A DNA stretch of 32,506 nt from positions 1-32,506 of the forward strand of contig JAJKHX010000277.1 in the NCBI GenBank assembly GCA_021154785.1. The letters run 5' to 3'. The notes beneath the pieces are model-generated. The model ran no database searches. It saw only the letters and a list, made by a program, of their open reading frames with translations, and was not told the DNA's origin. Below are positions 480-9,673 of this stretch, in pieces. The translations under genes and the position numbers were made by a program. The first letter of the stretch is position 1. Each line of letters begins with the position of its first letter. The stretch is from Nocardiopsis sp. (GTDB taxonomy: Bacteria; Actinomycetota; Actinomycetes; Streptosporangiales; Streptosporangiaceae).

Positions 480-1293
480 TCAGGTTGCTGTGAAGAGCTG
501 GTCCATGATCTGGGCGCCGGTGGTGATGACAGGTCGTAGTTCGCGGCGGTAGACGATCTCGGTGGTGCGGGTGGAGGCGTGGCCGGCCAGGCGGGCGATC
601 TCCTCGATGGCGACGCCGTGGTGGCTCATCAGGCTGACGAAGGTAGTGCGCAGCTCACGTGGGGTCCATCCGTCGCCAGTGCCGGCTTCGGTGCAGATGC
701 GCTTGAACATCTTCCGGACGTTGCCCGCGTCCAGCGCGGTGCCCAGGTGGCTGGTGAACACCAGGCCGGTCTCCTGCCAGTCGTCCCCGGCGGCGAGCCG
801 CTCGCCGGCCTGGCAGTCCTGCCAGGCACGCAGCGCCTGGACCGCCGCGGAGGGGAGGGCGAGGGTGCGGCGGGATCGTTCGGTCTTGGTGTCGCCGTGG
901 GCGCGGACCGACCTCCAGACGGCGATGTGCGGCGGGCCGGCGGACGTCTTTGAGGCCGGGCCGTAGTTCCATCACCGGCAGGGTCGCCGCGGCGGTCATG
1001 ACCGCGATGGCCTGGGCCGCCATCGCCGCCAGCCGCGCCAGGACGTTCTGGTTCTTGGTGACCGTTTTGGGGGAGCGGCCGTCGAGCCCGTGGGCGAGCC
1101 AGTCACTAGCGGCCTGCCGGACGGTGTAGTGGGCGTAGCCCGCTTTGGGGGTGACGCCCTTGTCGAGCTGGGCGTGCAGGTCGCGGAGCTTGTCCACCAC
1201 GGCGGCCTTGGACTTGCTGCTGACCTTGCGCCGCTGGCGCTTGCCGTCGCCGGTGTAGCCGAGCGTGAGCTCGCCGCGCCACAGCTCACAGGC
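480..1293 (-). pseudogene. Tyrosine recombinase (phage-type integrase) remnant
   Basis: Read from 1293 down, one frame gives an arm-type DNA-binding segment (CELWRGELTLGYTGDGKR) and the start of a core-binding domain (YTVRQAASDWLAHGLDGRSP). Sense then passes to another frame, starting near 935, which runs to 480. That frame holds the C-terminal catalytic domain with TPRELRTTF (second catalytic Arg), LAGHAS (His) and VYRRE (nucleophilic Tyr). The part that should carry the first catalytic Arg (TGxRxxE) is missing in every frame, as is most of the core-binding domain. The beginning is cut by an in-frame TGA at 1294-1296. The gene therefore has lost its N-terminus and at least one internal block and has shifted frame. 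It should be inactive and marks an old mobile element. Confidence 0.85.
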
Positions 1294-1326
1294 TCAGCAG
1301 GCTTCGCCCACCCCACAGGGGCGGCA

Positions 1327-2193
1327 TCAGTGGTCGGGATCGGCGAAGGTGGGCTCGCGGTCTTCGTTGAACGCGCCGATGCCTTCGACGCGATCGGGAT
1401 GGACGGCCGAGCGCCAGTGTGCCTCCATCATGATCGCGATGGCTTGCTCGATCGGCTCGCCCTGACCCATCCGGACCGCCTGCTTGACGGCCTGTACTGC
1501 GGTGGGTGAGTTGCTCGCGATCTTCCCCGCGATCCGGCGCGCGGCGTCGATGAGCTCATCTTGAGCGTAGAGTTCGTTGACCATGCCCAGCCGGTGCGCC
1601 TCCTGCGCGCTGATCGGATCGCCGGTCATCAGCATCTGCATGGCCTTGCCCGGCGGGAGCACGCGGGGGAGCAGCGCTGGCGAGCCGCCCCCGGCCGCGA
1701 GGCCGAGCATCGTCTCGGGCTGGCCGAAGGTGGCGTTGTCGGATGCGATGATGAAATCGGTGCTCTGGGCGAGTTCGCAGCCGCCGCCGTAGGCGATGCC
1801 GTTGACGGCAGTGAAGATCGGCTTCCGCAGCTGGCGCACCGTGTAGAGGGTGCGGTCGAAGTCCTGGCGCTGCCGCAGCCAGTCCTCCTTGGTCATGTTC
1901 TTGCGCTGGCGGAGGTCGCTGCCGACGGAGAAGGCCCGGCGGCCGGCTCCGGTGAGGATGACGGCGCGGACTGCGGGACGAACCGCGATCGTCTCCAGGA
2001 TCTCGGTCAGGCGCGCCCCCATCGCCGTGGTGATCGCGTTGTCCGCGTGCGGCCGGTTCAGCGTGATGACCGCCACCTTCTCGTCCTGCGTGTACTCGAC
2101 GAGCACGGGCAGGTCGGGTTCGTCGGCAGCTGACGACGGCGGGCCGAAGTCGAGTGCCTTCCAGCGGTCGGTGCGTGCTGGGCTTGTTGCCAT
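1327..2193 (-). CDS. Enoyl-CoA hydratase/isomerase family protein
   Basis: A 288-residue crotonase-fold protein, close to the usual family length. The oxyanion-hole region (TGAGRRAFSVGSDL, about 81-94) and both glutamates used by enoyl-CoA hydratases are present: E140 in GGGCELA and E160 in FGQPE. It could therefore hydrate a 2-enoyl-CoA, although the superfamily also includes isomerases, dehalogenases and C-C lyases. The first 30 residues are a non-conserved extension. The start has a clear AGGAAGGAG ribosome site. It begins 18 bases after the DyP peroxidase stop and is the last gene of a five-gene minus-strand operon, so it may act on an acyl-CoA made by that pathway. The substrate is not deducible. 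Confidence 0.9.
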   Translation of the reverse strand: MATSPARTDRWKALDFGPPSSAADEPDLPVLVEYTQDEKVAVITLNRPHADNAITTAMGARLTEILETIAVRPAVRAVILTGAGRRAFSVGSDLRQRKNMTKEDWLRQRQDFDRTLYTVRQLRKPIFTAVNGIAYGGGCELAQSTDFIIASDNATFGQPETMLGLAAGGGSPALLPRVLPPGKAMQMLMTGDPISAQEAHRLGMVNELYAQDELIDAARRIAGKIASNSPTAVQAVKQAVRMGQGEPIEQAIAIMMEAHWRSAVHPDRVEGIGAFNEDREPTFADPDH

Positions 2194-2211
2194 GTTCTCC
2201 TTCCTTCCTGT

Positions 2212-3594
2212 TCAGCCGGTCTGGGTGTCCAGCTCCGCCAGCCAGCGCAGCGCCCGCAGGCCCGGCGCGAAGCAGTACTCCCCGCCGCGGGTGATGACGA
2301 ACGGCGGCAGGCTCTGCAGCCGGCGGCGGATCGGCCGCTGAGGGATGGTGAAGCTGCCCGTTCCGTCGTTCGCTCCGGCGAGCGGGTCTTTCTCGGCGGG
2401 CGCGCCGATGAAGATGCCGTCGTTCAGCCATTGTGTCTTGACGAACTCGAACTGGCGCTTGGGGTGAGCTCCGGCGAAGACGAAGATGATGCCGCGGTCC
2501 GCGCCGTCGTCCTCGACGACGCCTTCGGGAAGCATCGGGCCGTAGCTCGTGCCGAGCCGGAGCATGCGGTGGAGGCGGACGTCGACGCTCATCTCGTGAT
2601 CGAGCGCGTCCCGGGGGTTCGCACGCCGGGCATGCGCGCCGGCCGGGCATTTGAAGCCGCGCAGATCATCGGTGTAGCCAAAGCGGTTGTTGCGGCCTGG
2701 GTCCGCGCCGAGATCGGCATCGTCTTGCTCGGGGGACAGCGCGAGCGGCGCGCCGCTCTGCCAGCGGCCGACCATCTTCGCGCCGAGCAGCGCCTCCTGT
2801 TCGCGGCTCGCCGCTTTGGCGTGAAGGTATTGCCGGTATGCGGCCACCCGGGTGTGGAGTTTCCGGAAGACCAGGTAGGTGCCGTTGCGGCCGAGGATCT
2901 CGGGAGCCGGCATCGGCCCCACGCTTCCGGTCTCGTCCGGATATCCGAGGATGAACTCGCCCGCTTTGATCGGCCGCTCGTCCGGGTTGGAGCCGGGGAT
3001 TCCGCTTCCTTCCACCGCAGGCTGGCCGATTCCGTCCTTGAAGCCGAAGGAGGTGCGCCCGGTCGGGAGCTGGTAGCAGTCCTGGTGCCAGATGACCTCG
3101 ACACCGGCTAGCTGCTCGTGCGCGCGGCGGGCCCGCTCGGCCAGGCTCTCCAGCCGCGCGGCGTCGGGCGATAGCACCGACACCGCGACGTGGGCCTCCG
3201 GGCTTCCCAGCGGCTTCTCCCAGTTCTCCGGGCTGCTGTCGCCGACATCGCCCAGCTCCGCCGCCCGGGCCGCCATGCCCTGCCGGAATTCCGGCGCGAA
3301 GCTGTCGAGCGAGTCCTGGGGCACGCCCAGCGCCTTCAGCCCCTGGTAGGTGAATGCCACCGAGACCCATGCGTTCCGGGTCGGATCAGATGAGGACCGG
3401 GCGGACTCGATCACCGGGAGCAGCCGCTGGACCAGCTTCCGTCCCGCCTCGCGGTTGTCGATGCGAAGCAGGAGGTAGGTGCCGACGTAGGAGGCCGGCC
3501 GCTGGTGAAGCATTCCGGACTGAATGTCATCGAGCTCCAGAGCCGTGCTCGCCGCGGTCGTCACGGGGTCCGCGGACGTTCGTTCACTGCACAT
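2212..3594 (-). CDS. DyP-type heme peroxidase
   Basis: A 460-residue dye-decolorising peroxidase. The signature GFKDGIGQP places the catalytic distal aspartate at D187. CPAGAHARRANPRD gives the proximal heme ligand H321, and the HRMLRLGTSYG segment supplies the conserved distal arginine (about R346). The length and inserts fit the longer DyP classes. There is no Tat or Sec signal, so it is probably cytoplasmic. The family uses H2O2 to oxidise dyes, phenolics or unknown metabolites. Its ATG lies inside the 3' end of the DUF4331 gene (11-base overlap) behind GGAGG, indicating translational coupling. I see no encapsulin gene nearby. Confidence 0.93.
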   Translation of the reverse strand: MCSERTSADPVTTAASTALELDDIQSGMLHQRPASYVGTYLLLRIDNREAGRKLVQRLLPVIESARSSSDPTRNAWVSVAFTYQGLKALGVPQDSLDSFAPEFRQGMAARAAELGDVGDSSPENWEKPLGSPEAHVAVSVLSPDAARLESLAERARRAHEQLAGVEVIWHQDCYQLPTGRTSFGFKDGIGQPAVEGSGIPGSNPDERPIKAGEFILGYPDETGSVGPMPAPEILGRNGTYLVFRKLHTRVAAYRQYLHAKAASREQEALLGAKMVGRWQSGAPLALSPEQDDADLGADPGRNNRFGYTDDLRGFKCPAGAHARRANPRDALDHEMSVDVRLHRMLRLGTSYGPMLPEGVVEDDGADRGIIFVFAGAHPKRQFEFVKTQWLNDGIFIGAPAEKDPLAGANDGTGSFTIPQRPIRRRLQSLPPFVITRGGEYCFAPGLRALRWLAELDTQTG

Positions 3595-4723
3595 GACGGG
3601 GAGCCTCCGGGGGGTCGGGATTCGGGGGCGCCAGGTAGGGGAACGCGCGCGAGGCGGCCCTTGTCGCCTGGTCGATGCCGTCGCGGATGACGGGCCCGTT
3701 CCCCGCGTTCACGAGCAGCGTGAAGATCGTGTCCATCACATCGTCGTTGAGCGCCCGGCCACCGCAGGTCTGGTGAGCTTCCCCGCGCCTGGCGGCGAGC
3801 TCGATCTCCAGGAACGACCCCTGCTCCGTGTACGGCTTGGTGACGTCAAGGATGAGGAAGTCGGCGAGGATGAGTTCGGTCAGCGGGTGCGCGCCATCCT
3901 CGCCAGGTGGCCAGTCGGTCTTACCGTCCAGGCCGTCCCAGAACGCCAGGTTCGCGTTCAGCCTGGCCCGGTACGCGCTCTGGTAGGCGTGGCTGAGGTC
4001 GAACGCGTCGTCCATGTTGTAAAGGTCGCGGATCTCGAGATCGCGGTTCACCGGGTCGAACTGCCTGGGCGCCAGCATCAGGTTGGGCACCTCGGGCCGC
4101 CCGGCGCGCTCGAGGCGGACGTTGAGGCCGCCGCGCGTCAGGGTCTCCGCGACCACGCCGACCAGCTCGGCACCGCCGGGCAGCACGGCGCGGTCTACCT
4201 CGACCACCAGGCTGAGAACGTTCTTGCCGTCGAGGTAGATCGCGCCCGGGTCGGTGAACGCGAGCTCGCCCGTGGCGATCGTCTTCAGTGTGGCCGGCGC
4301 ATCCATGATGAACGGATCCCACCGCGGCCCGGCGAACACGCGAACGCCGTCGGCCTGGCCTCCGCACTCGTCGGCCACCCGGATCGAGACCGCCCCGCCG
4401 GCCGGCACCGAGCACGTGCCTTCTTGCTCCGGGCGGTTCGCGCCGTGTCCGCCTGCGGGGGCCGAGAACACGCAGTCGATCGCGATCTCTTCGCCGCCCG
4501 CAGCGAATGGCGCCCCCTGCTGCTGGTTATTCGCAGTGAGCGGCCGCAGCCGGAAACGGTAGATGAGCCCGTCGGAGAAGACCGCCGACGGCGGCGCGAA
4601 CGGCAGCGTGTTCAGCACCAGGACGAGCCGGCCTGGGTGCTCGGGACTCGGGAACGCGTACAGGTCAGTGATGTCCGCGATCGGCTCGGCCATGGCCCGC
4701 GGCCCGGAGATGTGATGTGACAT
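3584..4723 (-). CDS. DUF4331 domain-containing protein
   Basis: 379 residues starting MSHHISGPRAMAEP, the typical opening of DUF4331 proteins, followed by DITDLYAFPSPEHPGR and a run of beta strands. It has no signal peptide or membrane segment, unlike some family members that are exported. It is probably a mostly beta protein, and no reaction is established for the family. GGAAGG precedes the ATG. The stop overlaps the DyP peroxidase start by 11 bases, so the two are likely made in fixed ratio and may act together. A direct physical partnership is inference. Confidence 0.88.
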   Translation of the reverse strand: MSHHISGPRAMAEPIADITDLYAFPSPEHPGRLVLVLNTLPFAPPSAVFSDGLIYRFRLRPLTANNQQQGAPFAAGGEEIAIDCVFSAPAGGHGANRPEQEGTCSVPAGGAVSIRVADECGGQADGVRVFAGPRWDPFIMDAPATLKTIATGELAFTDPGAIYLDGKNVLSLVVEVDRAVLPGGAELVGVVAETLTRGGLNVRLERAGRPEVPNLMLAPRQFDPVNRDLEIRDLYNMDDAFDLSHAYQSAYRARLNANLAFWDGLDGKTDWPPGEDGAHPLTELILADFLILDVTKPYTEQGSFLEIELAARRGEAHQTCGGRALNDDVMDTIFTLLVNAGNGPVIRDGIDQATRAASRAFPYLAPPNPDPPEAPRHVQ

Positions 4724-4769
4724 CGCCCGCCTTCCGTTGGGTTCCCCGGTTCGTCCGCGGCGCTCCGGC

Positions 4770-5315
4770 TTAGGCGTCTGCGGCCTCGTTGAGCAGTGGT
4801 TTCAGGGCGGGGTGCCGCAGCGCGTCCGCGGCGCCAGGATCGTCGAGGACCTGCTGGAAGGCCTCGTTCACCCGCAGCGCCTTGCGGATCTCCTTTACCG
4901 TGCCGGGATAATTCCGGGAGTAGCCTTGGGCGGTAACCTGCGCGCTCAAGATGAAATCCTTCACCGCGGTAAGGTCCGGGAGGCCCTCGTAGCCCTCGAC
5001 GTGCCGGAAGATCGAGTCGAAGAGCTGCAGCGGCTTGGACGCGAAGTCCTGCATGTAGGCGTCCCACGGGCCATCGAAGCTCGTCGCGAAGAGCAGCCGG
5101 GTGTCACCGTCGAACAGCACGAACCTGGCTTCGTGAATGGACGCGATCGGCACCTCGTAGTCTCCCGGCCGGTAGCCGGGACTGTCCTGCAGCGCCTGGA
5201 CCGCTTCCCGCAGGTCATCCCCGTGACCTGGCCTGACGCGGAAGAACAAGCTGAATTCGCTCGTGGAGCCGACCTGGACGCCCGGCCGGGGCGTTCCTGC
5301 TGAAGGGGTTGCCAA
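4770..5315 (-). CDS. Uncharacterised protein in the DyP/DUF4331 operon
   Basis: 181 residues, apparently soluble. The first half reads like one or two ferredoxin-like alpha/beta units: EFSLFFRVRPGHGDDLREAV, then an IHEARFVLFDGDTRLLFATSFDG stretch with D/W/Y residues and a helix. I have the impression that similar segments accompany heme peroxidases, but I cannot name a family. The start is a TTG at 5313-5315 with a good AGGAG eight bases upstream; no ATG in this frame does better. It lies 58 bases after the FAD oxidoreductase and 46 before DUF4331, so it is clearly part of the operon. It may be a small partner or substrate-handling protein of the peroxidase. Confidence 0.75.
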   Translation of the reverse strand: MATPSAGTPRPGVQVGSTSEFSLFFRVRPGHGDDLREAVQALQDSPGYRPGDYEVPIASIHEARFVLFDGDTRLLFATSFDGPWDAYMQDFASKPLQLFDSIFRHVEGYEGLPDLTAVKDFILSAQVTAQGYSRNYPGTVKEIRKALRVNEAFQQVLDDPGAADALRHPALKPLLNEAADA

Positions 5316-5373
5316 GATCTTTCTCCTATTTGTTCAGGGCGTGGTCCTGATATCGCCTGCGCCCGCAGCGAGC

Positions 5374-6828
5374 TCAGGCAACGCCGGCCTCCACTGCGGT
5401 TTCGAGATGATCGACGGCCCACATTCCGGTGTGATCGAGTTCGACCGCGGCGAGGATCGCCGCGCGGCCCAGGGCGTTGGCGTAGGTGGGAAACGAGAAC
5501 GGGACCAGTGCCAGTTCCTCGACGGGCATCTTCGCGGCCATCGCTGTCGCGGCCAGTTGCGCGAGCTCGACCGCCCGCTCCCCCACGACGTGGCAGCCCA
5601 GGATGGTATGGAGTTCGCGGTCCACGACCAGCTTGCAGAACCCTGTCTGGCGGCCATCGATGATCGGTCGCGGGAGCGAGTCGAAGCGCACCGTCGCCAC
5701 GACCACCTCGCGGTTCTCCCGGGCGGCCGCCTCGGTCAGCCCGGCCGAGGCATACTCGGGGTCCGTGAAGCTGCCGATCGGGCTCACCTGGGGAGACAAG
5801 ACCCTGGTCGCTCCCAGGACGGCATTGGTCGCGGCCACTAGCCCCTGGCGGACCGCCTCGTGCACGACCAGCGCGCGCCCGGTGACGTCGCCGGCGGCGA
5901 AGACGTGCGGCACGGTCGTGCGCAACTGCGCGTCGACCTGGACGTATCCGCGCCGATCGGTCTGCACCCCGGCCCGGTCGAGGCCCAGCCCGGCGGTGGC
6001 CGCGACCCATCCGGCCGCCACCACGGCCAGCGTGGCGTCGATGCTGTGCTGCCCGTCGCTGGCCGAATGGATGAGCCGCACGCCGGTCGCACAGCGCTCG
6101 AAGCGGTTGATCGTCCCGGCGTCCGCGACCACCTGGACGCCGGCCGCCGACATGGCGGCACTGACCGCTTCGGAGACCTCTTGGTCCTCGCTCATCAAGA
6201 CGCGGGGAGCGATCTCAATGAGATGGACCCGTGAGCCGAACGCGTTGAAGATCGATGCGACCTGCACGCCGGTCGCGCCAGCGCCGATCACGACCAGCGA
6301 CGGCGGCACCGAGGGAAGGCGCCACGCGTCGCTGTGTGTCGCGGTCAGGTCGAAGCCGGGAACCGCCAGCGGCCGTGAAGTTCCTCCCGTGCAGAGGATG
6401 ACCTTGCCGGCCTGAAGCCGCGGCGCATTGTCGCTTTCGATCGTGTGGGCGTCGGCGAAGCGCGCGGTGCCGGCCTGCTCGTAGATGCTCACCCCGGCGC
6501 GGTCCAGATCGTCGCGCAGCAGCGTGTGCTGGCGTGCGTCCGCGGTCACGTCGCGGACGCGGGCTAGCAGCCGGGCGTAGTCGAGCGAGGGTTCGCCCCC
6601 CGCGATCCCGTAGAGCGGGAGTTGCCTGGCCTCGCGGATCAGCCGTGCCGCCTGGGCCAGCGTGCGCACCGGAACGGGTCCGTCGTTCGCGGCCATTCCC
6701 CCGAACTGATCGCGGGTGATCAGCGCCGTGCTGGCTCCCAGACGGGCCGCACGGAGCGCCGCGACGACTCCCGCGGGTCCTGCTCCGACGACCACGACGT
6801 CGAACAGCTGACGTGGTGATGAGGCCAT
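5374..6828 (-). CDS. FAD-dependent NAD(P) oxidoreductase, disulfide-reductase fold without redox cysteines
   Basis: 484 residues with the layout of lipoamide dehydrogenase and mercuric reductase: FAD-binding GAGPAG at 15-20, a second Rossmann motif (VVIGAGATGVQVA), the FAD-contacting HVFAAGDVTG and a C-terminal dimerisation domain. The active-site CxxxxC that should follow GG at about 43-44 is replaced by GGMAANDGPVP. The C-terminal catalytic His is also absent (PFSFPTYANALG). It cannot use the standard dithiol mechanism and more likely passes electrons directly from flavin to an acceptor. The start chosen is the ATG at 6828 (MASSPRQLFD); a longer frame upstream is poor in content. It is first in the operon ending at 1327 and diverges from glucose dehydrogenase. 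Confidence 0.88.
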   Translation of the reverse strand: MASSPRQLFDVVVVGAGPAGVVAALRAARLGASTALITRDQFGGMAANDGPVPVRTLAQAARLIREARQLPLYGIAGGEPSLDYARLLARVRDVTADARQHTLLRDDLDRAGVSIYEQAGTARFADAHTIESDNAPRLQAGKVILCTGGTSRPLAVPGFDLTATHSDAWRLPSVPPSLVVIGAGATGVQVASIFNAFGSRVHLIEIAPRVLMSEDQEVSEAVSAAMSAAGVQVVADAGTINRFERCATGVRLIHSASDGQHSIDATLAVVAAGWVAATAGLGLDRAGVQTDRRGYVQVDAQLRTTVPHVFAAGDVTGRALVVHEAVRQGLVAATNAVLGATRVLSPQVSPIGSFTDPEYASAGLTEAAARENREVVVATVRFDSLPRPIIDGRQTGFCKLVVDRELHTILGCHVVGERAVELAQLAATAMAAKMPVEELALVPFSFPTYANALGRAAILAAVELDHTGMWAVDHLETAVEAGVA

Positions 6829-6913
6829 GACTCGATCATCCGGATCCCGGCCCGGCCCGTCATCATCCCTGCCGGGTGAGGCGGACGCGACAGTCGGCCG
6901 CGACGATGCGTAT

Positions 6914-7960
6914 GTGCGCGCGATGACAGTAGTGCCAGGCCAGAAGGGGACCGCTGGCATTGAGGAGGTCCCGGACCCGGATATGCGGGACGGCACCCTG
7001 CTGGTGCGGGGCATGGCGGTCGGGATCTGCGGCACCGACCGGGAGATCGCGGAAGGCGCCTACGGCACGCCACCACCCGGTGAAGCCAGGCTGATCATCG
7101 GCCACGAAAGTCTCGGCGAGGTGCTCAAGGCTCCAGTGGGATCAGGCTTCACACCCGGTGATCTGGTCGTCGGAATCGTACGCCGGCCCGATCCGGTGCC
7201 CTGCCCCGCGTGTGCCGCCGGAGAGTGGGACATGTGCCGGACCGACAGCTTCGGCGAGCGCGGCATCGCCCGCCTGCACGGGTACGGAAGCGAACATTGG
7301 CGGGTGGAACCGGACTTCGCCGTGCCCATCCTCCCCAGGCTAGGCGAGCTCGGCGTCCTGCTGGAACCGGCGTCCGTCCTGGCCAAGGCGTGGGACCAAG
7401 TGGACCAGATCTCGCGGCGTGCATTCTTCCTGCGCGGCCGGGCACTGGTCACCGGCGCCGGGCCGATCGGGCTGATGGCATGCCTGCTCGGTGCACAGCG
7501 CGGCTACGAGATGCACGTCGTCGACCTCGCGCAAGCCGGCCCGAAACGCGATCTCGTGGAGGACCTCGGCGCCCGGTACCATTCCGGTGACGCCGCCGAC
7601 ATCGACGTCGACGTCGATGTCGTCATCGAGTGCACCGGGCTCGGCGCGGTCGGCCGCTCCGCCGGCCGCAGGCTAGCCAGCGGCGGGATCATGTGCCTGA
7701 CCGGGATCATGAACCTAGACCCGGCCCTTGACGTGGACGCCACCGCCCTGAACCGCAACATGGTCCTGCATAACCAAGTTCTGGTCGGCACCGTGAACGC
7801 CGGCCGACGCCACTGGGAACAAGCTGCCAAAGCGCTCGCAACCGCCTACCCTGGCTGGCTGGGCAGGCTGATCACACGCCGGGTGCCGCTCACGTCCTGG
7901 ACCGAGGCGCTCGACCGGCAGCCGGAAGACATCAAGGTCGTGGTGGACCTCACCGTATGA
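6914..7960 (+). CDS. Glucose 1-dehydrogenase, zinc MDR type
   Basis: 348 residues when started at GTG 6914 (VRAMTVVPG, matching the usual family N-terminus); ATG 6923 and ATG 6827 are alternatives. It is a medium-chain alcohol-dehydrogenase-like enzyme. Catalytic zinc ligands C39, H64 and E65 (GICGTDRE, IIGHES) are present, as are structural-zinc cysteines in CPACAAGEWDMC and a nucleotide-binding GAGPIGLM. The C-terminus agrees with the glucose-dehydrogenase subgroup, which oxidises aldose sugars to lactones with NAD(P)+. The downstream gene, overlapping by ATGA, is a broken gluconolactonase-like gene that would have hydrolysed the lactone. A palindrome lies inside the gene at 7597-7622. Confidence 0.9.
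   Translation: MRAMTVVPGQKGTAGIEEVPDPDMRDGTLLVRGMAVGICGTDREIAEGAYGTPPPGEARLIIGHESLGEVLKAPVGSGFTPGDLVVGIVRRPDPVPCPACAAGEWDMCRTDSFGERGIARLHGYGSEHWRVEPDFAVPILPRLGELGVLLEPASVLAKAWDQVDQISRRAFFLRGRALVTGAGPIGLMACLLGAQRGYEMHVVDLAQAGPKRDLVEDLGARYHSGDAADIDVDVDVVIECTGLGAVGRSAGRRLASGGIMCLTGIMNLDPALDVDATALNRNMVLHNQVLVGTVNAGRRHWEQAAKALATAYPGWLGRLITRRVPLTSWTEALDRQPEDIKVVVDLTV
7597..7622. repeat. 26-bp perfect palindrome inside the glucose dehydrogenase gene
   Basis: The half-sequence CGACATCGACGTC is followed at once by its exact reverse complement, with no spacer. It encodes an alternating Asp-Ile-Asp-Val-Asp-Val-Asp-Val stretch, so the symmetry may simply follow from repeated GAC/GTC codons. It could also form a cruciform or bind a dimeric regulator. 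Confidence 0.85.
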
Positions 7961-8550
7961 GCGCCCACGAAGTGACAGTGTGGTCGGTAACCCCAGGGCT
8001 GCTGAGCGCCGGCCGCCGGTGGCGGGTACGCGCTCGCTGCGAGCACGGGGTTCCTGTTCGTCGACGACGCCGGCTCGATCCAGGAGCTTGCGCAGCCCGA
8101 CGGCGACCGCGCGGACGTGCGGATGAACGACGGGGCCTGCGACCAGCAAGGACGCTTCTGGGCCGGGACGATGGCCTACGACGAGTCGCCGGGCGCCGGG
8201 ACCCTTTATCGCCTCGAACTCGACGGCAGCTGCACCACAGTGCTCACCGGCCTGACCATCTCCAACGGCATCGGCTGGAGTCCTGACGCCAGCACGATGT
8301 ACCTCAACGACAGCGGCACCGTATGCGTCGACGCGTTCCGGTTCGACGGCCCGAGCGGGGCGATCAGCGACCGCCGCACCCTGGTGCACATCGACCAGCC
8401 AGGCGTGGCGCCAGACGGGCTCACGGTCGACGACGAGGGCGGAATCTGGGTCGCCCTGTGGAACGGTACGCGGGCAAGGTGTTCGCGATCGACGGACTCG
8501 GCGCCCGCGGCCTCCCCTGCCTGCCCTACCGCGGCACCACGGTCGTTTGA
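7957..8550 (+). pseudogene. SMP-30/gluconolactonase-like gene, broken
   Basis: An ATG at 7957 overlaps the glucose dehydrogenase stop, but its frame soon loses meaning. From about 8023 another frame gives a good SMP-30 core: GGYALAASTGFLFVDDAG, RMNDGACDQQGRFWAGTM, TISNGIGWSPDASTMYLNDS, and DGLTVDDEGGIWVALWNG ending near 8465. These include the Asn and Asp metal-ligand regions of the beta-propeller. The N-terminal 60 or more residues carrying the first Glu ligand are missing. After WNG the sequence shifts into an unrelated tail ending at TGA 8550. The family hydrolyses sugar lactones, so this probably was the partner of the upstream dehydrogenase. It should now be inactive. Confidence 0.8.
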
Positions 8551-8650
8551 GCAGTGCCCCTTCCTCATCACCCGGCGTGATGCTGCAATGACCCGGCCGG
8601 CCCGGGCCGGGGTGATGACGTGGCGGGGTGGTGCCGGGCAGGCTGGGGCG

Positions 8651-9673
8651 ATGAGGTTGGGTGGGCTGAGCGGCCTGGTGGGCCGGGTCGTCGGGTGGGC
8701 GGACCGGCTGCAGCGCGGGCATGGCGTGCTGGGGTTCCCTTACGCGGTGGTGAAGAAGTACGGCGATGATGAGGGCGGGCGGCAGGCGGCGCTGATCACC
8801 TATTACGGGTTCTTGAGCATCTTCCCGCTGCTGCTGCTGGGGGTGGCGGTCCTGTCCCGGGTGCTGGCCGGCCATCCGGAGCTGCGCGGCCGGCTGATCG
8901 CCGAGATCGTGCCGCGGGCGCTGCGGTCCTCGGTCGAGCATTCGCTGGCCACCATGCCGGCGTCGACCGTCCCGTTCGTGGCCGGCCTGGCCGGCTTGCT
9001 GCTGTCCGGGACTGGGGTGGTGTTCTCGGCTTACCAGACGCTGAATCACGTCGCGGTGGTCCGGCACCGGTTCCGGGCCGGTTTCGTCGCGCGGTATGTG
9101 CGGGTGTTCGCGGTGCTGGCGATGCTGATGCTCGGGGCGCTGGCGGCCGGTGCGCTCACGGTGGTGGCCACCGCGCTGCCGGGCCAGCCCGCGGTGCAGC
9201 GGGCGGCCGCGGTGCTCGGGTCGGCGCTGGTCGTCTTCGCGGTGCTGCTGGTGGGCGCCAGGTTGCTGCTGGTGCGGCCCGCGCCGGTCCGGGCGCTGTG
9301 GCCGGGAGCGGTCCTGGGCGCGGCGGCGGTGACGGTCGTGCTCAACGCCGGGGCGCCGTTGCTGGCCCGGCTGGTGGCCAGGGCCGGGCCTGTGTACGGC
9401 AGCTTCGCCACCGTGGCGGGCATGTTCGCCCTGCTGTACCTGGTCGGCCAGGCGCTGGTGTACGCGGCCGAGGTCGCGGCTGTCCGCTACGCCCGGCTGT
9501 GGCCGCGCGCCCTGGACGTGAACCACCCCACCGCGGCCGATGCCCGCGCGCTGGCCCTGCGGGCCCGCGAGGAAGAACGCATCCCCGCCGCCCGCATCGA
9601 TTTCCACCTCGCAGCGCCGGGCTCCCCGCCGGCACCAGGCGGTTCCCCGCCAGCCAATGATGACCCCGGGTAA
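8651..9673 (+). CDS. YihY/BrkB family membrane protein
   Basis: 340 residues. After a short basic N-terminus comes the family hallmark: a re-entrant region around DDEGGRQAALITYYGFLSIFPLLLL, then about six hydrophobic segments, with the conserved TLNHVAVVRHR between the third and fourth. The cytoplasmic tail is charged and ends in a proline-rich stretch. The family is widespread; earlier names as virulence factor or RNase BN are not supported, and a transporter role is only suspected. The ATG at 8651 was chosen from the family N-terminus, but its ribosome site is weak and ATG 8612 or 8588 are possible. It follows the broken SMP-30 gene by about 100 bases. Confidence 0.85.
   Translation: MRLGGLSGLVGRVVGWADRLQRGHGVLGFPYAVVKKYGDDEGGRQAALITYYGFLSIFPLLLLGVAVLSRVLAGHPELRGRLIAEIVPRALRSSVEHSLATMPASTVPFVAGLAGLLLSGTGVVFSAYQTLNHVAVVRHRFRAGFVARYVRVFAVLAMLMLGALAAGALTVVATALPGQPAVQRAAAVLGSALVVFAVLLVGARLLLVRPAPVRALWPGAVLGAAAVTVVLNAGAPLLARLVARAGPVYGSFATVAGMFALLYLVGQALVYAAEVAAVRYARLWPRALDVNHPTAADARALALRAREEERIPAARIDFHLAAPGSPPAPGGSPPANDDPG

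What the first reader, a model, noticed from the sequence alone, without database searches (positions are those of the whole stretch)
1327..6828. Five-gene operon built around a DyP peroxidase and DUF4331
FAD oxidoreductase, unknown protein, DUF4331, DyP peroxidase and enoyl-CoA hydratase lie in one direction with gaps of 58, 46, -11 and 18 bases. Known: DyP enzymes are H2O2-dependent. Inferred: the flavoenzyme could supply electrons or H2O2 and the hydratase could process an acyl-CoA product, so this may be an undescribed oxidative pathway.
Basis: partly seen in the sequence, partly recalled or inferred. Interest (0 to 1): 0.6.

Follow-up and report, generated by a model that had tools for sequence, protein, structure and literature searches.

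The report
Conserved peroxidase and sulfite-oxidase gene cassette
Four of the five genes are most of a conserved, apparently undescribed bacterial gene cassette that pairs a dye-decolorizing peroxidase with an unknown protein (DUF4331), an enoyl-CoA hydratase and usually a molybdenum sulfite-oxidase-like enzyme, which makes the role of one poorly understood peroxidase testable.

Summary
In detail: five co-directional genes with gaps 58, 46, -11 and 18. A search of named genomes with only the 181-aa unknown protein gave 36 loci. In 32 of 36 the order is ABM-fold protein, DUF4331, DyP, enoyl-CoA hydratase (ECH) and then a gene outside the finding: a heme-less sulfite-oxidase-type molybdoenzyme (SUOX). 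The window lacks SUOX; a broken integrase lies there. Its genome holds a SUOX on another contig behind a decayed second ECH tail. Close SUOX and close ECH occur in the same 3 of 396 phylum genomes. The flavoprotein is upstream of ABM in none of the 28 cassettes with 2 kb or more of upstream DNA. Yet its close orthologues (4 intact, 1 broken, all one genus) lie near other ABM–DyP genes, and DyP-linked versions lack the redox disulfide. Best explanation: an oxidase–peroxidase module in which SUOX, or the Cys-less flavoprotein, makes H2O2, DyP uses it, and ECH handles a CoA-linked substrate. The cassette is shown; the chemistry is inferred (0.4). No paper in the searched library mentions DUF4331 or PF14224.

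The parts
5374..6828 (-). Pyridine-nucleotide disulfide-reductase-like FAD protein without the CxxxxC disulfide (GGMAANDGPVPVRT) and without the C-terminal His-Glu dyad
   Evidence: orthologues near ABM and DyP genes in relatives
4770..5315 (-). 181-aa protein, no Pfam family over cut-off; predicted ABM/SchA-like ferredoxin-type alpha+beta domain plus C-terminal helices
3584..4723 (-). DUF4331 protein (PF14224), 379 aa
   Evidence: low-confidence model
2212..3594 (-). DyP-type peroxidase, 460 aa; Asp187 of GxxDG, His321 and Arg343 invariant in 20 of 20 aligned
1327..2193 (-). Enoyl-CoA hydratase/crotonase, 288 aa; Glu140 and Glu160 invariant in 16 of 16 aligned
480..761 (-). C-terminal piece of a phage-type integrase (PF00589), where relatives carry the SUOX gene; ORFs 655-1200 and 996-1316 beside it gave no Pfam hit and may be further broken pieces
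   Evidence: absence of SUOX in the window

Best explanation
The window carries a variant of a conserved cassette, ABM-fold protein - DUF4331 - DyP - ECH - SUOX. I propose a soluble oxidase-peroxidase module. A heme-less sulfite-oxidase-type Mo enzyme (canonical form), or a Cys-less NAD(P)H-dependent flavoprotein (window and some relatives), passes electrons to O2 and yields H2O2. The DyP uses that H2O2 to oxidise a small organic substrate, helped by the ABM-fold and DUF4331 proteins. The crotonase then hydrates or splits a CoA thioester derived from it. Shown: composition, order, co-occurrence, retained catalytic residues, loss of the disulfide. Inferred: H2O2 coupling, substrate, roles of ABM and DUF4331, cytosolic location, and that the SUOX on contig C473 serves the window's cassette. 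That the cassette is a real unit is near certain (about 0.95); the confidence given is for the H2O2-coupling mechanism.
For: 32 of 36 loci found with P0002 alone have ABM-DUF4331-DyP-ECH-SUOX in one order and strand. Median gaps are 26, 2, 25 and 40 bases where both genes passed the script's intactness rule (n = 30, 21, 22, 29). At the clustering used, no family outside the cassette is in more than 6 of the 36 loci plus window, antisense ORFs over the cassette aside. Close SUOX and close ECH fall in the same 3 of 396 phylum genomes and lie in the order DyP-ECH-SUOX in the two others, G493 and G575. Own genome: a SUOX 74% identical to the Leifsonia one at C473 behind an ECH relic. Residues: DyP 20 of 20, ECH 16 of 16, SUOX Cys87, Arg92, Arg44, Tyr181 16 of 16, aligned with chicken sulfite oxidase. 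No heme domain in the SUOX representative. Plant sulfite oxidase uses O2 and yields H2O2, and mouse or human enzyme reacts with O2 once its heme domain is removed (PMC10574614, passages). 8 of 8 DyP-linked flavoproteins lack CxxxxC while 12 of 12 distant homologues keep it.
Against: No biochemical data and no substrate. SUOX might use another acceptor than O2. It scores below the SorA, SoxC and SorT cut-offs (177, 169, 150 against 600, 420, 570); near its C-terminus an Arg that is nearly invariant in the cassette SUOX (position 343) is His in the window genome's copy. Two Streptomyces loci (L097, L099) have ABM-DyP-DUF4331 with no ECH or SUOX hit. Other relatives pair ABM and DyP with a different protein X. 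The 27 loci with distant DUF4331 proteins (L038-L064) showed no other cassette protein in their short flanks, so DUF4331 in general is not a DyP partner. The FAD evidence rests on one genus. The cassette is rare (3 of 396).
Confidence: 0.4

Rival explanations
1. A sulfite/peroxide stress bundle: SUOX removes sulfite, DyP removes H2O2, ABM and DUF4331 are protective helpers, and the crotonase recycles a damaged CoA thioester. There is no shared substrate; the genes are selected together because one stress calls for all.
For: SUOX retains sulfite-site residues; plant sulfite oxidase works together with peroxide handling (PMC10574614 passages). The cassette is rare and patchy, as accessory stress genes often are.
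Against: No further family recurs beside it in more than 6 of 36 loci plus window, so no shared regulator or exporter is seen. A crotonase with both Glu intact in 16 of 16 is not a usual detoxification gene.
Confidence: 0.25
2. A short catabolic pathway for an organosulfur or aromatic acid: DyP and ABM oxidise the substrate, the crotonase acts on its CoA ester, sulfite is released and SUOX oxidises it; H2O2 comes from general metabolism.
For: Crotonase and SUOX are the last two genes, median gap 40 bases; isolate names and bin titles suggest soil and plant habitats for many carriers (habitat inferred from names).
Against: No CoA ligase, thiolase or transporter family recurs beside the cassette, so a whole pathway would need dispersed genes.
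Confidence: 0.2
3. Part of a natural-product pathway: the ABM/SchA-like fold and the peroxidase tailor a polyketide-like molecule.
For: Best fold match of the ABM protein is the WhiE-ORFI ABM/SchA-like protein (9lmn_B, Z 10.0, rmsd 3.4, 113 aligned).
Against: Flanks of the loci are scrambled and no further family recurs widely; identified window neighbours are transaldolase, transketolase, an AMP-binding enzyme and others; a shared fold shows no function.
Confidence: 0.1

Closest known systems
DyP-type peroxidase, class V (former C/D)
   Same: Superfamily HMM over cut-off; GxxDG Asp and conserved His and Arg; best solved relatives 8re3/8re2 over residues 19-455, then ancestral D-type and fungal DyPs. 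The class is my reading of these hits.
   Different: DyP operons in the review passages I saw are efeUOB/fepABC, besides encapsulin cargo (PMC8197335); none with DUF4331, crotonase or a molybdoenzyme.
Heme-less (plant-type) sulfite oxidase
   Same: PF00174 + PF03404 over cut-off, no heme domain listed; Mo-Cys and anion-site residues.
   Different: Bacterial, in one gene row with a peroxidase and a crotonase; under SorA/SorT/SoxC cut-offs; substrate and acceptor untested.
Flavoprotein disulfide reductases (lipoamide dehydrogenase, mercuric reductase)
   Same: Both Pfam domains; best HMMs lipoamide_DH and MerA.
   Different: CxxxxC and His-Glu dyad absent; below the cut-off of each of the 25 NCBIfam models shown.
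Short-chain enoyl-CoA hydratase (crotonase)
   Same: PF00378; Glu140 and Glu160 aligned with the two catalytic Glu, 16 of 16.
   Different: Below the cut-off of each of the 25 NCBIfam models shown; N-terminal stretch of about 30 residues outside the aligned domain; close orthologues found in 3 of 396 genomes, beside DyP in each.
ABM/SchA-like ferredoxin-type barrels
   Same: Predicted fold.
   Different: No ABM family in the Pfam scan; extra C-terminal helices; Glu20, Arg64, Asp85, Tyr87, Asp90 invariant in 30 of 30, role unknown.

Membership tests
DyP-type peroxidase | Family HMM over curated cut-off | tested here: met
   TIGR01413 107 bits, cut-off 100.5; PF21105 36.6, cut-off 27.5
DyP-type peroxidase | GxxDG Asp, distal Arg, proximal His | tested here: met
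   D187, R343, H321 invariant in 20 of 20; role of Asp and Arg from PMC8197335 passages; which Arg and His are the catalytic ones is by recalled position
DyP-type peroxidase | Heme binding and H2O2-dependent oxidation | not testable with these tools
   needs protein
EfeUOB-type DyP operon | EfeB-type DyP with iron-permease and EfeO neighbours | tested here: not met
   EfeB-type model TIGR01412 27 bits, cut-off 428; scanned window neighbours are other families. The 36 loci were not scanned for EfeU/EfeO.
Encapsulin cargo system | Encapsulin shell gene beside DyP | not tested
   no encapsulin search was run
Heme-less sulfite oxidase type | Mo-binding and dimerisation domains, no heme domain | tested here: met
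   L081 representative only: PF00174 166 bits, PF03404 40.7 bits, both over cut-off; no heme domain listed
Heme-less sulfite oxidase type | Mo-ligand Cys and sulfite-site Arg/Tyr | tested here: met
   C87, R92, R44, Y181 invariant in 16 of 16 and aligned to the chicken enzyme; roles of the chicken residues recalled; the C-terminal Arg is offset by one in the alignment and is His in the window genome's copy
Heme-less sulfite oxidase type | O2 as acceptor, H2O2 formed | not testable with these tools
   inference from PMC10574614
SorA / SorT / SoxC sulfite dehydrogenases | NCBIfam equivalog cut-off | tested here: not met
   177/600, 150/570, 169/420 bits
Flavoprotein disulfide reductase (enzyme function) | Redox-active CxxxxC and His-Glu dyad | tested here: not met
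   CxxxxC absent in 8 of 8 DyP-linked proteins, dyad absent in the 7 covering it; both present in 12 of 12 distant homologues
Enoyl-CoA hydratase/crotonase | Family HMM and two catalytic Glu | tested here: met
   PF00378 200.6 bits, cut-off 27; E140, E160 (positions of the catalytic Glu recalled)
DUF4331 (PF14224) | Pfam gathering score | tested here: met
   93.6 bits, cut-off 27
Antibiotic biosynthesis monooxygenase (ABM) | Sequence family match | tested here: not met
   no ABM family in the Pfam scan
Antibiotic biosynthesis monooxygenase (ABM) | Ferredoxin-type alpha+beta barrel fold | tested here: inconclusive
   predicted model only; Z 10.0 to 9lmn_B and about 6-8 to many ABM chains; Foldseek TM-score to 9lmn_B 0.46 by query

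The most novel reading that the evidence does not exclude
A previously unrecognised enzyme system in which a bacterial molybdenum sulfite oxidase, or in variants a Cys-less flavoprotein, is the dedicated H2O2 source for a DyP peroxidase. This DUF4331 subfamily and the ABM-like protein would form part of the catalytic complex, and a crotonase would complete a new CoA-linked oxidative transformation.
Probability: 0.3. Interest if true: 0.8.

Novelty: new variant of a known kind. Interest (0 to 1): 0.58.

Why it matters
The physiological roles of DyP peroxidases remain unclear (PMC8197335 passage), and no paper in the searched library names DUF4331 or PF14224. A compact, co-occurring cassette with intact active sites ties one DyP group to a candidate oxidase and a CoA enzyme. 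It gives this DUF4331 subfamily a functional context and turns 'what is this DyP for' into a gene-deletion and reconstitution experiment in cultured soil actinomycetes.

Tried and rejected
DUF4331 fold: the model is poor (pLDDT 63). Foldseek gave no match at E 0.001 or better, and VIA-align only immunoglobulin-like sandwiches under Z 8; not used.

PDB sequence searches with the ABM and DUF4331 profiles gave nothing usable.

Protein X (between ABM and DyP in relatives) as a diverged DUF4331: not supported, hhalign probability 0.7%.

SUOX hidden in the window: none by tblastn at 1e-6.

The C473 ECH relic as a cut-off part of the window's own ECH: rejected. The window ECH is complete and the relic differs from it (85.6% DNA identity over 139 bases).

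Papers. DUF4331 with peroxidase 0, DUF4331 0, PF14224 0, DyP with ECH, sulfite oxidase and operon 0, dye-decolorizing peroxidase with gene neighborhood 0. Any two of six terms: 3,472 papers, 30 listed, none opened. DyP, sulfite oxidase and molybd: 2; PMC4531530 seen by passages, where the terms stand in separate contexts and a Frankia DyP lies in a possible iron-transport operon, PMC12403002 by listing only. Plant sulfite oxidase: 6 listed, PMC10574614 seen by passages. ABM with DyP: 1, PMC4835899 by passages. DyP-type peroxidase, operon, Actinobacteria: 12 of 28 listed, PMC8197335 by passages, 12 of 23 places.

Mirror-tree: Spearman 0.65-0.83 over 20 sets (the window's SUOX there is the C473 one). 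It does not correct for species relatedness and carries little weight.

Rows dropped before counts. Sequences had to be intact and cover over 85% of the query to be aligned: ABM 34, DUF4331 31, DyP 25, ECH 31 and SUOX 30 passed out of 36 loci, and I aligned only a chosen part of them. The genome searches scored only the best first-look candidates (5 or 6 a genome), so absences there are 'not found'. The window's genome is about 74% complete.
Full report
1. The observation. The five genes, strand and gaps are as reported. Pfam and NCBIfam name a Pyr_redox flavoprotein, DUF4331 (PF14224), a DyP peroxidase and an enoyl-CoA hydratase; the 181-aa protein has no family over its cut-off.

2. Conservation. 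I searched one-genome-per-species contigs with the 181-aa protein alone, so that no neighbour could bias the sample. 36 named loci came back. Mapping the five window proteins, plus a sixth found by clustering neighbour ORFs, gave 32 of 36 loci with ABM-DUF4331-DyP-ECH-SUOX in the same order and strand; a recount agrees. In L068 and L088 the DUF4331 match is in two pieces, and in L068 the contig ends inside SUOX. The four others are L065 (contig ends inside DUF4331), L098 (Rhodococcus, pieces rearranged, no ECH or SUOX hit), and L097 and L099 (Streptomyces: ABM-DyP-DUF4331, then a TPR-like ORF and a flavoprotein; no ECH or SUOX hit). By record title the 32 include Terrabacter, Kribbella, Nocardioides, Occultella, Streptomyces, Leifsonia, Arthrobacter, Paractinoplanes, Jiangella, Actinomycetospora, Microbacterium, Oerskovia, Solirubrobacter (class Thermoleophilia) and metagenome bins labelled Nocardioidaceae, Actinobacteria or Chloroflexi, labels that may be wrong. 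Several are close relatives, so these are not 32 independent events. With clusters at 35% identity, no family outside the cassette recurs in more than 6 of the 36 loci plus window, leaving aside two clusters of antisense ORFs over the cassette itself. Median intergenic gaps are 26, 2, 25 and 40 bases (n = 30, 21, 22, 29), with outliers at L097 and at mis-started genes.

3. The missing fifth gene. After ECH the 32 loci have a molybdoenzyme of sulfite-oxidase type (PF00174 + PF03404 in the L081 representative). The window has none; an integrase fragment (PF00589, 480-761) lies there. The window's genome has a SUOX 74% identical to the Leifsonia one at C473:19584-20648. Just before it is the tail of a second ECH: residues 244-288 at 82% identity, with one further short piece and 85.6% DNA identity to the window ECH over 139 bases. 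Only SUOX of that second set was seen whole; the genome's other DyP and DUF4331 matches (C248, 44-45%; C385, 27%) are distant. In 396 genomes of the phylum the close SUOX (E <= 1e-100) and the close ECH (E <= 1e-90) are found in the same three: the window's own and two more, where DyP, ECH and SUOX follow each other. If the two placements outside the own genome were independent, the chance that they coincide would be about 1.3e-5. DUF4331 close to the window's (67-72%) was found in 2 of 295 other genomes of the class, both next to ABM and DyP. The more distant DUF4331 proteins of that search (27 loci, L038-L064) showed no other cassette protein in their short flanks, so the link holds for this subfamily only.

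4. The flavoprotein. It is not upstream of ABM in any of the 36 loci; four of the 32 canonical ones hold under 700 bases upstream and cannot tell, 28 hold 2 kb or more. Weak homologues (29-34%) lie more than 5 kb away in L082 and L096, and after DUF4331 in L097 and L099. Among 200 genomes of the window's order four intact orthologues at 60-61% identity exist, all in one genus. All four lie near an ABM-like gene (about 26-30%) and a DyP gene (about 60%). In G091, G123 and G138 the flavoprotein is directly upstream of ABM. In G147 about 1.7 kb lie between (coordinates), and no ABM shows in its flavoprotein flank. For G138 the ABM match was too weak for the tblastn and was seen. A broken copy lies at the same place in G140. 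Of 24 other genomes with an ABM match, 4 showed a flavoprotein in the short flank. These sets lack DUF4331, ECH and SUOX matches. A 338-aa protein X, unrelated to DUF4331, was read between ABM and DyP in five loci (L102, L104, L110, L111, L113). In 8 of 8 DyP-linked flavoproteins, the two distant Streptomyces ones included, the CxxxxC disulfide is gone; the His-Glu dyad is gone in the 7 that cover that part. 12 of 12 distant homologues (32-34%) keep both. The window protein therefore cannot act as a normal disulfide reductase; NAD(P)H oxidase, transhydrogenase or another electron transfer is left (inference).

5. Enzymes look intact. DyP: D187, H321, R343 invariant in 20 of 20. ECH: E140 and E160 in 16 of 16. 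SUOX: C87, R92, R44, Y181 in 16 of 16, aligned with the chicken enzyme; near the C-terminus an Arg (343) present in the other rows is His in the window genome's copy. Residue roles in the reference enzymes are recalled, except the GXXDG Asp and the distal Arg (PMC8197335 passages). The DyP alignment holds the window, 13 canonical and 6 non-canonical loci; the ECH and SUOX ones hold 15 loci each besides the first row.

6. The two unknowns. The ABM-like protein is predicted with pLDDT 83 as a ferredoxin-type domain, best WhiE-ORFI 9lmn_B (Z 10.0, rmsd 3.4, 113 aligned). The same superfamily holds DyP itself and heme-handling proteins (PMC4835899, passages), so a heme or substrate role beside DyP is natural but untested. 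DUF4331 could not be modelled well.

7. Mechanism. Plant sulfite oxidase, which has no heme, passes electrons to O2 and gives H2O2, first as superoxide (PMC10574614, passages). A heme-less SUOX in one gene row with an H2O2-dependent peroxidase therefore suggests an oxidase-peroxidase couple. The Cys-less flavoprotein may take that place in other DyP sets. I give this 0.4. Rivals (stress bundle, organosulfur or aromatic catabolism, natural-product tailoring) are listed with their refutations.

8. Novelty. Searches for DUF4331, PF14224, DyP with gene neighborhood, DyP with sulfite oxidase, mixed terms, DyP with ABM and DyP operons in Actinobacteria showed no description in what I saw, which was listings and passages. 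The library lacks most subscription papers, so this is weak evidence of absence. All enzyme parts belong to known families; the combination is new to me. I therefore call it a new variant of a known kind (an operonic DyP system).

Upstream coverage, the single genus behind the flavoprotein evidence, the distant DUF4331 controls and the dropped rows are now stated.

Noticed in passing
window 480-1316: Broken phage-type integrase (PF00589 in 480-761) where relatives have the SUOX gene; possible agent of the loss or of transfer of the cassette.
   Followed up: partly
L121 7317-8655 (G000 C473): Decayed ECH tail followed by a whole sulfite-oxidase-like gene: remains of a second cassette in the same genome.
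   Followed up: yes
L101-L104, L109-L113: Second arrangement: (flavoprotein)-ABM-X-DyP. X, a conserved 338-aa protein with no Pfam match, was read in L102, L104, L110, L111 and L113. A gene like the SBF/bile-acid-symporter of L102 follows DyP in 7 of the 9 by eye from the ORF starts; only L102's was scanned.
   Followed up: partly
L105 4003-9368: Third arrangement: weakly catalase-like 400-aa protein (PF00199 E 0.0015, below cut-off), DyP, two tandem ABM-like genes, then an ORF with BTAD/ATPase regulator matches.
   Followed up: no
L031 (G000 C248) 360-2304: The window's genome has another ABM (39%) and DyP (44-45%) pair, the DyP match in two pieces with the middle not matched, beside an ORF that looks like the end of a LuxR-type regulator (by eye).
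   Followed up: no
L098 4133-6814: Rhodococcus sp. ARC_M6: cassette genes split and partly inverted, as after rearrangement or misassembly.
   Followed up: no
window 8117-9673: One open frame matches a gluconolactonase (SGL) and then BrkB; perhaps two genes merged by a frame or assembly event, near a glucose-dehydrogenase-like gene (6827-7960).
   Followed up: no
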